Shown one piece after another: positions 13,921 through 40,283 of a stretch of DNA of 64,000 nt. The stretch spans positions 124,001 through 188,000 of the forward strand of contig NZ_NQKX01000007.1 in NCBI RefSeq assembly GCF_002252635.1, given 5' to 3'. Source of the DNA: Synechococcus sp. MW101C3 (GTDB taxonomy: Bacteria; Cyanobacteriota; Cyanobacteriia; PCC-6307; Cyanobiaceae). Each line of letters opens with the position of its first letter. Within the stretch, counting starts at the first letter, position 1. A program made the position numbers and the translations under genes. Under the pieces are notes generated by a model. That model ran no database searches. It saw nothing but the letters and a program-made list of their open reading frames with translations, and was not told the DNA's origin.

Positions 13921-16230
13921 ATGGCTCCCGCCAGCCTCGACTGGATGGTCCAAGACGGTCAGAAACTCGAAGAGTGCCGTCACGATCATCCGTTTGCGGT
14001 GCTGGGGCCCCAACCTCTCGGCGATCACTGGGTGGTGCGGGCCTGGATGCCCGAGGCCGAACGGGTGGAACTGCGTCTCAATGGCCAGTCGCTGGCGATG
14101 GAGTGCCCCCATCACCGCTGGCTGTTCGAAGCGGAACTGGATCACGATCCCGCCCAGAATTACCAGTTGTGGGTGCGACGCGCAGGTATCGAGCACCAGC
14201 AGCACGACCCATGGGCCTTCCGTGAAGAGTGGATGGGCGAGCTCGATCGCCATCTCTTCGCCGAAGGCAACCACCACCACATCTGGCGGCGGCTTGGAGC
14301 CCATGTGTGCGAGCGCAATGGTGTGGCGGGCGTGCAGTTCGCCCTGTGGGCTCCCAATGCCCTCACGGTGGCGATGCTGGGCGATTTCAACGGTTGGGAT
14401 GGCCGCCACCATCCGATGCAGCTGCGCCTCGGTGGCATCTGGGAGCTGTTCATCCCCGGGCTGATGCCGGGAACGATCTACAAATACGAAGTCCGCAATC
14501 AACACGGGCACTGCTATCAGAAGGCCGATCCCTACGGCTTCCAGCACGAGGTGCGACCGCAGCAGGGGTCGGTGGTGGCGCAGTTGGGCCAGTACCGCTG
14601 GTCCGACCAGGGCTGGCTGGCCGAGCGCGACAGCCGCGATCCGCTGGAGCAGCCGATCGCCGTCTACGAGATGCATCTGGGCAGCTGGATGCACGCGGCC
14701 ATGGATCAACCGTTCATTGAGCCCGATGGCACGCCCCGGCCGCCGGTGGCCGCCGCTGATCTCAAGCCAGGCGCCAGGCTGCTCACCTATCCGGAACTGG
14801 CCGACCGCCTGATCCCCTATGTGAAAGCACGCGGCTTCACCCACATCGAGCTGCTGCCGATCGCCGAGCATCCGTTCGATGGCTCCTGGGGGTATCAAGT
14901 CACCGGCTTCTATGCCCCCACCAGCCGCTTCGGTTCCCCGGATGAGTTCCGTGCCTTCGTGGACCGCTGCCACGCCGAAGGCATCGGCGTGCTGCTCGAC
15001 TGGGTGCCGGGCCACTTCCCCAAGGACAGCCATGGCCTGGCCTTCTTCGATGGCTGCCACCTCTACGAGCACGCCGATTCACGCATCGGTGAGCACAAGG
15101 AATGGGGCACGCTGATCTTCAACTACAGCCGCAACGAAGTGCGCAACTTCCTGGTGGCCAATCTTGTGTATTGGTTCGAGGAGTTCCACATCGATGGCAT
15201 CCGGGTGGATGCTGTGGCGTCCATGCTGTACCGCGATTATCTCCGCCCGGATGGAGAGTGGCTGCCGAACGAATACGGCGGCAGGGAAAATCTCGAGGCC
15301 GTGCGCTTCCTGCAGCAGGCCAATGCGGTGCTTTTCCATCATTTCCCGGGGGCGCTGTCGATCGCCGAAGAATCCACCACCTGGCCCATGGTCACCAAGC
15401 CCACCGAAATCGGTGGCCTGGGCTTCAACTTGAAGTGGAACATGGGCTGGATGCACGACATGCTCGATTACTTCGAGCTGGATCATTGGTTCCGCCAGTT
15501 CCATCAGAACAACATCAGCTTCTCGATCTGGTATCACTACACCGAGAACTTCATGCTGGCCCTCAGCCATGATGAAGTGGTGCACGGCAAGAGCAGCCTG
15601 CTGCACAAGATGCCCGGCGACGATTGGCTGAAGTTCGCCAACGTGCGCGCCCTTCTCGCCTACATGTGGACCCACCCGGGCAAGAAGACCATCTTCATGG
15701 GGATGGAATTCGGCCAGCGCTCCGAATGGAACGTGTGGGGCGATCTGCAGTGGGATCTGCTCCAGTACGACGCCCACAAAGGCCTGCTGGCCATGGTTGA
15801 CGACCTCAACCGCTTCTACCGCGAAGAGCCAGCGCTCTGGCGCGACGACTTCGTTGAATACGGCTTCCAGTGGATCGACTGCAGCGACAACCGCCACTCC
15901 GTGATCAGCTTCATGCGCCGGGAGAGCACTACTGGGCGCTGGCTGGTGGTGGTGGCCAACTTCACCCCGCAGAGTCATTCCCACTACCGGGTGGGGGTGC
16001 CGCTCGAGGGCTACTACAGCGAGGTGTTCAACACCGACAGCAGCCGTTACGGCGGCAGCAACCTCGGCAATCTCGGCGGCAAGTTCACCGATACCTGCCC
16101 CATGCACTGCTACGAGCAATCCATCAACCTCTGCCTGCCGCCTCTCAGCGTCCTGGTGCTGCAGCGCGATGAAGCCCGCAGCCAGGCCCTGTGTGACGAA
16201 TCCACCGAAGCCGGCCGGCTGGTCGGGTAG
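13921..16230 (+). CDS. glgB: 1,4-alpha-glucan branching enzyme (GH13)
   Basis: Makes alpha-1,6 branches in glycogen, the carbon store of cyanobacteria. The 769 residues include two N-terminal CBM48-type modules (about 20-110 and 125-225), the second with [13 protein letters not shown]. The GH13 barrel follows, with nucleophile D430 in [10 protein letters not shown], the acid/base Glu at 483/484 in IAEESTTWP and D551 in [12 protein letters not shown]-terminal beta domain ends the protein. Length and domain order are standard. It starts with ATG at 13921 and hemE follows 26 bp after the stop. Confidence 0.98.
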
Positions 16231-25524: not shown

Positions 25525-25977
25525 TCATTCCCCCAGCAGATGGAGGCTCAGCTCACGGCAACTGCCAGCGGCGCGGTGCTCCCAGAGGTAAACCGCCTGC
25601 CAGGTGCCGAGCATCAGGCGGCCCTGCTCAAACGGCAGCGACAGGGTGCTGGTCGTCAGTGCCGTGCGCACATGGGCCGGCATGTCGTCGGGGCCTTCGT
25701 CGTCATGCACCCAAGGCCGCAGCCGGCCTTGCCCACTGAGCGGGCGCACCCCTTCCTGCGGCACCAGCGCCTGCAGAAACGCAGCAAGGTCCAGCAGCAC
25801 ACGGGGATCGGCGTTTTCATTGATCGTCAGGCTGCAGCTGGTATGCCGGAGCAACACATTGAGAACGCCCTGGCGGAGTCCAGAAGCGGTCACGCAGGCA
25901 GCCAACTGAGATGTCAGGTCGGTGAAGCCCTCACCCTCGGTGGAAACTCGCAGTTGCGACAAGTACTGACAGAGCAT
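25525..25977 (-). CDS. YjbQ / UPF0047 family protein
   Basis: A 150-residue single-domain protein of the YjbQ (UPF0047) family. Conserved landmarks are GVLNVLLRHTSCSLTINENADP-like (residues about 37-58) and the C-terminal WQAVYLWEHR, which together form the family's putative metal/active site with conserved His and Glu. E. coli YjbQ was reported to have weak thiamine phosphate synthase activity; its true role is unsettled. It lies 16 bp upstream of the low-complexity gene on the same strand. Start ATG at 25977 gives a normal length. Confidence 0.9.
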   Translation of the reverse strand: MLCQYLSQLRVSTEGEGFTDLTSQLAACVTASGLRQGVLNVLLRHTSCSLTINENADPRVLLDLAAFLQALVPQEGVRPLSGQGRLRPWVHDDEGPDDMPAHVRTALTTSTLSLPFEQGRLMLGTWQAVYLWEHRAAGSCRELSLHLLGE

Positions 25978-26049
25978 GGAAAACAGGCCGGGCGGTCATG
26001 GTTGGGTCATCTTTAGTCTCTATGGTTGCGCCATCACAACAGATTTCCA

Positions 26050-26331
26050 ATGGCTCCCCTTCCCCTTGCTTCATGGCGTGCCGCACAGCTTCCTATTGGC
26101 CTGATGGCGCTGCTCATGGTTCCGCTGGCGGGTGGGGCTGTGGCGGGCGGGGCCATTGCACAGCAGGTGATCCCGAAGCGAGAAGGAATGTGTCCGCTCG
26201 GGTATGTCGACACCTTCAACGGCAAGTGCAGTACCCTCGGGGTCACCTCTTACACCGTGAGTCCACGGGATGGAGAAGCCTGTCAGTCGGGCTGGATGAA
26301 CATCGGCGGAGGCTATTGCCGCAAGAAATGA
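26050..26331 (+). CDS. Small secreted protein with duplicated CxxG[YW]...GxC motif
   Basis: A 93-residue exported protein from ATG at 26050 (TTG at 26026 is also in frame). The signal peptide has core IGLMALLMVPLAGG and ends near AIAQ at about 38. The mature part holds exactly four Cys (48, 60, 78, 90) in two matching units: C-PLGY...GK-C and C-QSGW...GY-C, each with 11 residues between the Cys. This implies two small disulfide-closed loops. I recall similar short proteins in picocyanobacteria but know no function. Its stop abuts the stop of the convergent regulator gene. Confidence 0.7.
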   Translation: MAPLPLASWRAAQLPIGLMALLMVPLAGGAVAGGAIAQQVIPKREGMCPLGYVDTFNGKCSTLGVTSYTVSPRDGEACQSGWMNIGGGYCRKK

Positions 26332-27060
26332 TCACAGGGGATCACGGCCTTGGCTCGGTCCCTTTTGCCAGCGCACCAGCCCGGTGGTAACGGCGATCAG
26401 GGCAGCATGGTTGCGATTGCGTGCTCCCAGTTTGCTTCGAATCGCCTTCATGTGGGTTCGCACCGTTTCCACGGACACGAGCAGCTGGGCAGCGATCTCT
26501 GCATTTCTGTACCCTTCCACCAGCTTGCAGAGCACATCGCGTTCGCGGGGGGTCAGCCGTGTTCTGACTTCCCCAACGGAGCTGAACGTACCCTTCAGCA
26601 TGATCGTCAACAGAGGGGCATCCATGTAGATGCCGCCATCAAGGATCACCTTGAGCGCCGTGACGATATAACCCCGGCCCGCATAGCGCTCTAGGCAGAT
26701 GCCATCACTGCCCGAGGCGAACGCTTCCTCCAGCACGTCCGATGTTTCGTTCTGCAAGATCAGCAGGCACGGCAGGTGGGGATGGCGATGCTTGATCCTG
26801 CGAATGAAAGCCATTCCCGTGCTTCCTTCAAGGAATTCACCCACCAGCACAAGATCGGGCACGAGCTGCTGAAGATGCTTCAAGCCAGCCTCCTCAGTAG
26901 TGGCGCTATGCAGTGAACAGACCACACTTTCCAGGAGAATTTTCATGTGGCCGATCATCATGCGCCGAGCGCTCACACACAGCAGCGAGCGACCAAAGAG
27001 TAGCTTCCTGGTAGCTTCATCTTGCTCCAGATCAGATTGTAGGAACGGGTTGAAATCCAT
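26332..27060 (-). CDS. LuxR-family DNA-binding regulator with degenerate receiver domain
   Basis: A 242-residue regulator from ATG at 27060. The C-terminal GerE/LuxR helix-turn-helix is clear (about 168-215: LTPRERDVLCKLVEGYRN, then VSVETVRTHMKAIRSKLG). The N-terminal 140 residues have receiver-like spacing (VPDLVLVGEFLEG, then GMAFIRRIK), but the phospho-acceptor Asp is replaced: the usual LLDxxLPG position reads VGEFLEG (74-79), and the early acidic pair is missing. It is therefore probably not controlled by phosphorylation. The upstream extension of the frame (to 27159) is not protein-like. Base composition is visibly less GC-rich than neighbours, consistent with transfer or relaxed selection. 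Confidence 0.82.
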   Translation of the reverse strand: MDFNPFLQSDLEQDEATRKLLFGRSLLCVSARRMMIGHMKILLESVVCSLHSATTEEAGLKHLQQLVPDLVLVGEFLEGSTGMAFIRRIKHRHPHLPCLLILQNETSDVLEEAFASGSDGICLERYAGRGYIVTALKVILDGGIYMDAPLLTIMLKGTFSSVGEVRTRLTPRERDVLCKLVEGYRNAEIAAQLLVSVETVRTHMKAIRSKLGARNRNHAALIAVTTGLVRWQKGPSQGRDPL

Positions 27061-27542
27061 TAATCTTCCGGCGAGTCTGCCGCTGAATGCCGCAGCGGCA
27101 GATGGTCGAGTTGCCTTTGTGCAGACAACTGGGGTATCAGAGGTAACAACGCCAGCCATGGGATGGACAGAACAGGGACATGGTCCATCTGAAGGCGGTT
27201 AGCAGCCTGGAACATCCCCGACACGGGCCAAATCGACCACATTGGGCGGGTGGGTAAATGTGCACGGCCGGGCAAAGTCGTACAGAACGAAGTTGTGTGA
27301 GGGTAGCCGTTTCCATGGCGAATTGCAGAAGAATTGCCGTGCCATCGCTCGGGCACCGTTAGAACAGCACCCTATTCTTCTCATTTTTTGCGCCACACCG
27401 GTCACTCACACCAGCCTGGAGACACGCAATCCTCTGAAAACGCATTGGCGCCCCATTCAGTTTCACTACCGCACGGGCCAGGCAATGCCCTGAAGCCTCA
27501 ATACCGAAGCGCGCGGTCACTGCGCCTGGCGCATCGGCAGGT
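27061..27542. other. 482-bp intergenic region upstream of the LuxR-type gene
   Basis: The longest gene-free stretch in the window and noticeably more AT-rich. No credible gene, tRNA or terminator is visible; open frames inside it have no protein-like composition. Notable sites are a direct repeat GAATTGC (27320-27326 and 27331-27337, 11-bp period) and a 13-nt palindrome TGCGCC-T-GGCGCA at 27521-27533, just behind the DUF2721 stop. It probably carries the promoter and operators of the LuxR-type gene. Confidence 0.5.
27320..27337. promoter_or_regulatory. Candidate operator: GAATTGC direct repeat, 11-bp period
   Basis: Two identical GAATTGC heptamers separated by AGAA, so the copies sit on the same face of the helix one turn apart. 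ATGGC before and GCCAT after add an outer inverted repeat. It lies about 260 bp upstream of the LuxR-type start codon. Regulatory role is a guess from spacing and location. Confidence 0.25.
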
Positions 27543-28019
27543 TCAGTAGTAACGCTTGGGATTCTGGGAAATCGCCAGCTGCACCTCCTGCAGGAAAAGC
27601 ACCAGCCCCACGATCAGCATCAGCATCGCCAGCACGAAGGCTGGCACCAGGATGGCGGCAAGATCCAAAACCGCCACCGCACTCACGAACATCACAGCCA
27701 CCACCGCGGCGATCAGCAGCGCTGTGAAGGTGACGCAGAAGATGGCGCGGTTGATCAAAAACATGCGCTTCTTCTGCACATCCAGCGATTTGCGCAAGCG
27801 GCGCGCCTCCTGGGTGGTGCCCCGAGCGAGCGCCTCCTGCAGCAGGCGGGTGCGGTCGACGATCCGTGCTAACCGCTGGGTGAACATGCTCAGCAGGCCG
27901 GTGATGCCCGTGAGCAGGAACACCGGCGCCACCGACAGCTGAATGGCATAGGAGAGCTTGGCGACCGCTGCGGTGCTTTCCGTGCCGGCCGCGAGCACGA
28001 GGATGTCCGGGGCCGTCAT
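27543..28019 (-). CDS. DUF2721 family membrane protein
   Basis: A 158-residue membrane protein from ATG at 28019 (the longer open frame upstream overlaps the opposite gene and is not convincing). Layout: N-terminal hydrophobic helix (about 20-44, ending in LLSMFTQRLARIVDRTR, a conserved stretch), a charged cytoplasmic helix (about 50-78), then two long hydrophobic segments (about 82-105 and 110-140). This matches DUF2721, widespread in cyanobacteria and proteobacteria, role unknown. It diverges from the OsmC gene with a 61-bp shared promoter region. Confidence 0.8.
   Translation of the reverse strand: MTAPDILVLAAGTESTAAVAKLSYAIQLSVAPVFLLTGITGLLSMFTQRLARIVDRTRLLQEALARGTTQEARRLRKSLDVQKKRMFLINRAIFCVTFTALLIAAVVAVMFVSAVAVLDLAAILVPAFVLAMLMLIVGLVLFLQEVQLAISQNPKRYY

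Positions 28020-38909: not shown

Positions 38910-40283
<1,374 letters not shown>

What the first reader, a model, noticed from the sequence alone, without database searches (positions are those of the whole stretch)
26050..27060. Degenerate-receiver LuxR regulator tail-to-tail with a duplicated-Cys-loop secreted protein
Seen: the regulator's receiver-like domain has Gly-Glu where the phospho-acceptor Asp should be and lacks the early acidic pair, while its LuxR helix-turn-helix is intact. The convergent neighbour is a signal-peptide protein whose mature part has two matching C-x11-C loops, each with G[YW] after the first Cys. The two stop codons abut exactly (26331/26332), and the DNA is less GC-rich than the surroundings with a 482-bp upstream region. 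Inference: a phosphorylation-independent regulator linked to a small extracellular or periplasmic effector, possibly acquired together.
Basis: partly seen in the sequence, partly recalled or inferred. Interest (0 to 1): 0.55.

Follow-up and report, generated by a model that had tools for sequence, protein, structure and literature searches.

The report
Relocated phosphorylation-blind regulator beside secreted protein
A gene switch that has lost every residue needed for normal on/off phosphorylation moved, apparently once, in the ancestry of a group of tiny cyanobacteria and now sits tail-to-tail with an older gene for a small secreted protein; the two look like neighbours by a gene move, not a cassette acquired together.

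Summary
The 242-aa regulator (26332-27060, -) is a NarL/LuxR-type protein whose receiver has lost all five catalytic residues; the same holds, with one Lys retained, in 30 of 30 regulators read. The convergent 93-aa secreted protein has a C-x11-C-x17-C-x11-C core; its two loops keep their spacing in 55 of 55 distinct motif-matching sequences.

The interpretation changes. The two genes have separate histories. The secreted gene sits in a conserved block (phhB/yjbQ ... M32/ppa/hemC) with or without the regulator, and elsewhere is often followed directly by a DCC1-like thiol-disulfide oxidoreductase gene (32 of 63 genomes). The regulator's usual home is DUF1825-REG-HHH-GIY (13 of 14 non-pair regulators). 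In 15 of 15 pair genomes where that locus was found it is closed to 131-133 bp with no regulator. So a regulator gene moved next to an older resident gene, probably once.

Both genes are under purifying selection. Nothing here shows that the regulator controls the secreted protein. Function is inferred: phosphorylation-independent DNA binding, set by level or partner. A good natural experiment on pseudo-receivers, otherwise modest.

The parts
26332..27060 (-). Pseudo-receiver NarL/LuxR-type regulator, 242 aa
   Evidence: Pfam PF00072 and PF00196 above cut-off; in L007 and L067 the equivalent ATG is the first start of the frame; dN/dS 0.17-0.25
26626..26991 (-). Receiver-like domain (about residues 24-145); G74 (codon 26839-26841) at the phospho-Asp position, S30/A31 at the acidic pair, L102 at Thr, R125 at Lys
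   Evidence: alignment to canonical receivers of the same genome and to VraR/NarL
26392..26556 (-). LuxR/GerE helix-turn-helix (residues 169-223)
   Evidence: PF00196, 61 bits
26050..26331 (+). Small secreted protein, 93 aa, no Pfam/NCBIfam/PHROG match
   Evidence: homologues in 179 of 400 family genomes
26050..26160 (+). Putative Sec signal peptide (residues 1-37, AIA|Q), judged by eye
   Evidence: A37 and Q38 invariant in alignment A1; no signal-peptide program was available
26191..26229 (+). Cys loop 1, C48-x11-C60 (CPLGYVDTFNGKC)
26281..26319 (+). Cys loop 2, C78-x11-C90 (CQSGWMNIGGGYC)
26331..26332 (.). Abutting stop codons of the convergent pair; no terminator-like site found between 25900 and 27700
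25978..26049 (.). 72-bp intergenic region, putative promoter region of the secreted gene, strongly conserved within the genus
   Evidence: no shared motif seen by eye in other genera
27061..27542 (.). 482-bp region upstream of the regulator; no Rfam match

Best explanation
The regulator is an old, vertically inherited transcription factor of picocyanobacteria with a wholly degenerate (pseudo-)receiver and an intact LuxR helix-turn-helix. Its gene moved, most likely once, in the ancestor of three related genera, out of a DUF1825-REG-HHH-GIY cluster and into the gap between an older resident gene for a small disulfide-looped secreted protein and a DUF2721 gene. Shown: loss of all catalytic residues, conservation of both genes, the two addresses, the closed former site. 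Inferred: the protein binds DNA without phosphorylation, its activity being set by its amount or by a partner protein; the secreted protein is a Sec-exported periplasmic or extracellular protein with two disulfide loops, whose commonest genomic partner elsewhere is a DCC1-like thiol-disulfide oxidoreductase. Regulation of the secreted gene by the regulator is possible but unsupported.
For: All five catalytic positions lost in 16 of 16 pair regulators, and in 30 of 30 regulators apart from one retained Lys. HTH intact. 13 of 14 non-pair regulators read lie beside DUF1825 and/or HHH; in 15 of 15 pair genomes where the locus was found DUF1825 and HHH are 131-133 bp apart with no regulator, while 11 of 12 non-pair genomes tested have it at that address (the sixteenth pair genome, G077, gave no HHH match). 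Pair regulators form a supported clade (96/97); eight pair genomes form one clade on seven proteins (88/91). Secreted gene at the same place without the regulator. dN/dS 0.17-0.25 for the regulator, 0.09-0.39 for the secreted gene. DCC1-like gene directly downstream of the secreted gene in 32 of 63 genomes, identified by Pfam PF04134.
Against: The three-protein marker tree needed three changes for the pair label, and the clade falls short of the program's star. Duplication with loss of the old copy would look the same as a move. One non-pair genome (G024) also has an empty old site with its regulator at a third place, so the gene has moved more than once in the family. AlphaFold models are poor (mean pLDDT 40.8 and 53.9), so fold and disulfides are not confirmed. 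Long regulator branches (1.03 for the window's genus) would also fit partly relaxed constraint. No expression, binding or localisation data.
Confidence: 0.72

Rival explanations
1. One reading: regulator and secreted protein are a functional cassette gained together, the regulator controlling the secreted gene.
For: Adjacency kept in 16 regulators of three genera at 35-41% regulator identity to the window across genera; both genes under constraint.
Against: Separate histories: secreted gene older at the site, regulator moved in. Surrounding genes are also syntenic, so adjacency is weak evidence. Uncoupled distribution in g9 and g59. Promoters lie at opposite ends of a convergent pair.
Confidence: 0.1
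2. The regulator is a decaying relic after the move.
For: Receiver catalytic residues gone; long branches in the pair clade; lower GC in the window.
Against: dN/dS 0.17-0.25, open frames and HTH in all 16 pair regulators. Receiver loss predates the move, being shared by the unmoved orthologues.
Confidence: 0.08
3. A phosphorylatable response regulator with the Asp shifted by one residue (D/E at D+1).
For: D or E follows the site in 20 of 30 regulators.
Against: H there in 10 of 16 pair regulators; acidic pair absent in 30 of 30, Thr/Ser absent in 30 of 30, Lys kept in 1 of 30. D+8 Gly and the VraR alignment fix the register.
Confidence: 0.03
4. Duplication in the ancestor, then loss of the copy at the DUF1825 site, rather than cut-and-paste (a variant of the best explanation).
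For: Same end state; the data cannot tell them apart.
Against: No genome with both copies among those read, though few basal lineages were sampled.
Confidence: 0.3

Closest known systems
Pseudo-receiver / aspartate-less receiver (PsR/ALR) atypical response regulators (PMC12632262, PMC4395418)
   Same: PF00072-recognised domain lacking the phospho-Asp and other active-site residues, fused to a DNA-binding output
   Different: All five positions are lost in the pair clade, and the Asp site is S/T/G rather than the Glu that PMC12632262 names as most frequent in ALRs
NarL/FixJ (LuxR-HTH) response regulators VraR, NarL
   Same: Same two-domain order; best solved relatives by profile (VraR E 4.6e-34)
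   Different: VraR and NarL keep the phospho-Asp in the aligned segment; here it is gone
NblR, cyanobacterial phosphorylation-independent regulator
   Same: Works without phosphorylation according to PMC12632262 section 19
   Different: NCBIfam NblR model scores 26.7 against a cut-off of 300
PedR, cyanobacterial thiol-switch LuxR regulator
   Same: LuxR-type HTH without phosphorylation, redox-controlled (PMC13421787, passages)
   Different: NCBIfam PedR scores 24.9 against a cut-off of 120 and covers the HTH only
CPW_WPC domain (PF09717), Plasmodium proteins
   Same: Cys-Pro-x-x-Trp-like motifs; 8 of 16 relatives of the secreted protein match weakly, best E 0.0033
   Different: The window protein does not match; where a score was seen it was below cut-off (14.2 against 23 for the G000 paralogue); probably chance or convergence

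Membership tests
Pseudo-receiver (PsR) as defined in PMC12632262 | recognised as a receiver (PF00072) | tested here: met
   33.4 bits against cut-off 30.2 for the window; 17 of 19 in alignment A2 at E up to 0.01
Pseudo-receiver (PsR) as defined in PMC12632262 | lacks at least one of DD, D, T, K | tested here: met
   0 of 5 kept in the window; at least four lost in 30 of 30
Aspartate-less receiver (ALR) | phospho-Asp missing | tested here: met
   G/S/T at the site in 30 of 30
NarL/FixJ response regulator | receiver followed by GerE/LuxR HTH | tested here: met
NarL/FixJ response regulator | phosphorylatable conserved Asp | tested here: not met
   residue absent; no biochemistry
LuxR quorum-sensing regulators | autoinducer-binding domain | tested here: not met
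   no such Pfam match listed at E up to 1
NblR | NCBIfam NF045914 cut-off | tested here: not met
   26.7 of 300 bits
PedR | NCBIfam NF052366 cut-off | tested here: not met
   24.9 of 120 bits
CPW_WPC (secreted protein) | Pfam gathering score | tested here: not met
   window member: no match at E up to 1; G000 paralogue 14.2 of 23; scores of the 8 weak members were not shown
Cyanobacterial double-glycine secreted biofilm peptides (recalled) | double-glycine leader | not tested
   the window protein has a Sec-type leader by eye; no reference sequence was compared
Sec-exported protein | cleaved signal peptide | not testable with these tools
   AxA|Q by eye, A and Q invariant in 16 rows

The most novel reading that the evidence does not exclude
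The move rewired a redox module: a regulator with a Cys (C122) present in 16 of 16 moved copies but 6 of 14 unmoved ones took the place beside the disulfide-looped secreted protein where other genera carry a DCC1-like thiol-disulfide oxidoreductase, so that thiol state or convergent (antisense) transcription now couples regulator and secreted protein.
Probability: 0.08. Interest if true: 0.65.

Novelty: new member of a known kind. Interest (0 to 1): 0.4.

Why it matters
How bacterial pseudo-receivers are switched is called a mystery in a 2025 review (PMC12632262, abstract). Here one regulator exists at two genomic addresses in closely related picocyanobacteria, so its regulon, expression and partners can be compared before and after a gene move. 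The secreted protein belongs to a widespread, tightly conserved family of these organisms whose window member has no match in Pfam, NCBIfam or PHROGs, and its recurrent DCC1-like neighbour gives a first testable hint of function.

Tried and rejected
AlphaFold2 with two-row alignments gave mean pLDDT 40.8 (regulator) and 53.9 (secreted protein); the regulator's predicted elements alternate strand and helix roughly as in a receiver, but this is not evidence at that confidence, and Foldseek returned no match at E up to 0.001.

PDB search with the secreted-protein profile gave only chance matches, best E 0.073. Pfam, NCBIfam and PHROGs gave none for the window protein. Rfam gave none for the window. 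Terminator and promoter scans of 25900-27700 gave 0 sites against shuffle means of 1.2 and 0.5. Folding of 16 junctions gave z -2.3 to 0.7, no shared terminator.

Upstream regions of the secreted gene were read for a shared operator by eye: conserved within the genus only; no motif statistic was computed. A first marker tree of three proteins did not join the pair genomes; seven proteins did.

'Horizontally acquired because of low GC' was rejected: regulator GC is nearer to local GC in most other pair genomes, and the gene belongs to the same lineage as the one at the old locus.

Paper searches on picocyanobacterial LuxR regulators, pseudo-receivers, DCC proteins, small secreted proteins, CPW-WPC, DUF1825/DUF2721 and gene relocation listed nothing that describes this pair or this move.

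Full report
What is in the sequence. The window is G000:C7:124001-188000 of a 3.03-Mb genome; the one relative found in a named record is an uncultured Cyanobium MAG contig (L007). The regulator lies at 26332-27060 on the minus strand and the secreted protein at 26050-26331 on the plus strand, with abutting stops. The regulator matches Response_reg (33.4 bits, cut-off 30.2) and GerE (61 bits, cut-off 23.5); the secreted protein matches nothing in Pfam or NCBIfam at E up to 1 or in PHROGs. I take the 242-aa start: in L007 and L067 the equivalent ATG is the first start codon of the open frame, and the window's upstream ATG at 27159 is not conserved there.

The receiver. On an alignment with two canonical receivers of the same genome (L002, L004), the window has S30, A31, G74, L102 and R125 where E/D, D, D, T and K stand. 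Over 30 different regulators (16 pair, 14 other; L009 dropped as a copy of L007), the first acidic position is S/L/F, the second A/G, the Asp position G 1, T 17, S 12, the Thr position L/V/I/M, and Lys remains in 1 of 30. The register is supported by the D+8 Gly (30 of 30) and by the profile alignment to VraR (E 4.6e-34). By the definition in PMC12632262 (section 3 passage) this is a pseudo-receiver, and an aspartate-less one. That review (section 4) puts pseudo-receivers at about 6% of bacterial receivers, so the class is not rare; its abstract says that how they are switched is a mystery. G000 has at least one more LuxR protein without the receiver Asp (L003).

The secreted protein. Relatives at E up to 1e-3 occur in 179 of 400 genomes of the family. 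In a scan of 339 genomes of the phylum 27 matched, all of the same family. The mature part is strongly conserved, and in the 55 distinct sequences found by a pattern in all loci held at that point the two Cys loops are always C-x11-C, joined by 17 (40) or 15 (15) residues. The 15-residue form includes a second copy in G000 (C2:124548-124778). A weak CPW_WPC signal appears in 8 of 16 relatives (best E 0.0033) but not in the window protein.

The pair. Of the 30 loci fetched for the best regulator matches in the family search, the 16 with the highest scores (window included) hold both genes convergently and the next 14 (L023-L036) do not. One of the 16, from G077, is the same contig as the named L007. 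They fall in three genera coded g1, g36, g48. Gaps are 0 bp in g1, 10-25 bp in the others, with a 19-bp overlap in G048.

Two separate histories. Of 20 larger regions fetched, 13 come from genomes without an adjacent regulator, and no regulator was found in those 13. In most of them the secreted gene keeps parts of the same surroundings (phhB, yjbQ on one side; DUF2721, OsmC, M32 peptidase, ppa, hemC on the other) (part of the output was cut). In several a DCC1-like protein (PF04134) follows on the same strand. Sequence reading adds G002, G138, G054, G023, and G111 and G161 with more distant copies. DCC relatives exist in 317 of 400 genomes, many without the secreted gene, so they do not depend on it.

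The regulator's other address. The 14 non-pair regulators share neighbours: DUF1825 (PF08855) divergently on one side, then an HHH protein (weak PF12836, below its cut-off) and a protein I read by eye as GIY-YIG-like (no Pfam match) on the other. 13 of 14 lie beside DUF1825 and/or HHH; the exception is L033 from G024. I then searched HHH in 28 genomes: found in 27. Of 16 pair genomes searched, G077 gave no match; the other 15 have DUF1825 and HHH 131-133 bp apart and no regulator. Of 12 non-pair genomes, 11 have the regulator at this address, 10 of them with DUF1825 visible on the other side (in G045 only HHH was seen); G024 has an empty site and its regulator elsewhere. So the pair genomes hold the regulator at a new address. 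Copy-and-loss cannot be told from cut-and-paste.

One event? The 16 pair regulators are one clade (96/97). A tree of three proteins needed three changes of the pair label. Adding four proteins, with somewhat different genomes, put the eight pair genomes on one side of a branch, support 88/91, below the program's star. One move in the ancestor of g1, g36 and g48 is the simplest reading, not proven. The old address is the commoner one, seen in eight genera (g6, g10, g19, g31, g35, g45, g51, g54), which argues for the direction.

Constraint. dN/dS is 0.17-0.25 for the regulator, 0.09-0.10 for the secreted gene in g1 and 0.29-0.39 in g36 (short gene, signal peptide included), and 0.03-0.11 for ppa. 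Both genes are kept. Regulator branches are long, so it evolves fast, but it does not look like a decaying gene.

Does one control the other? Nothing found says so. The promoters are at opposite ends. In g36 the regulator starts 13-14 bp after a DUF2721 gene, in the window after 482 bp. No terminator-like site lies between the convergent genes, and the 16 junctions share no strong fold (z -2.3 to 0.7), so overlapping transcripts are conceivable. Distribution does not couple the two: g9 has 8 genomes with the regulator and no secreted gene, g59 three with the secreted gene and no regulator at E up to 1e-20 (genus counts read from the tables; weaker regulators could be missed).

How it most likely works. 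Inferred from family knowledge: NarL-type proteins bind DNA as dimers through the HTH; with no phospho-switch, pseudo-receivers are thought to be active as made, or controlled by amount or partners (PMC12632262, sections 18 and 19). C122 is present in 16 of 16 moved copies and 6 of 14 others, which leaves room for a thiol switch as in PedR (PMC13421787, passages), but that is a guess. The secreted protein is most likely an oxidised, exported protein; its link to DCC1-like genes hints at thiol chemistry.

Verdict. The reading 'acquired together' is replaced by a gene move next to an older gene. The regulator is a new member of a known kind; the secreted protein is an undescribed family in the libraries and papers searched. 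Papers: PMC12632262 outline, abstract, passages and sections 4, 7, 18, 19; PMC4395418, PMC13421787 and PMC11424642 passages only; all others search listings.

Noticed in passing
L080:9740-10180 and about 40 genomes: A DCC1-like thiol-disulfide oxidoreductase gene follows the secreted gene on the same strand in many genera; two genomes (G071, G029) keep it beside a degenerate remnant of the secreted gene.
   Followed up: partly
G000:C2:124548-124778 (L087): A second, shorter-linker copy of the secreted protein family in the same genome; in genus g35 two copies stand about 300 bp apart.
   Followed up: partly
G000:C5:141692-142219 (L003): Another LuxR protein with a receiver lacking the phospho-Asp; it matches the window regulator only at E 1.5e-10.
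   Followed up: partly
L007:227-1576 and 1332-2909: In the Cyanobium MAG contig the M32 carboxypeptidase gene breaks off at ...LQDIHWAE and a serine-recombinase-like ORF follows, as if an element had inserted there (read by eye).
   Followed up: no
L113 (G039:C1:54360-54593), L112 (G071), L114 (G029): Weak, partly stop-containing relatives of the secreted protein at the edge of its range.
   Followed up: no
window 15001-16000 and 39001-40000: Two other dips of GC to about 0.60 in a window that averages 0.68.
   Followed up: no
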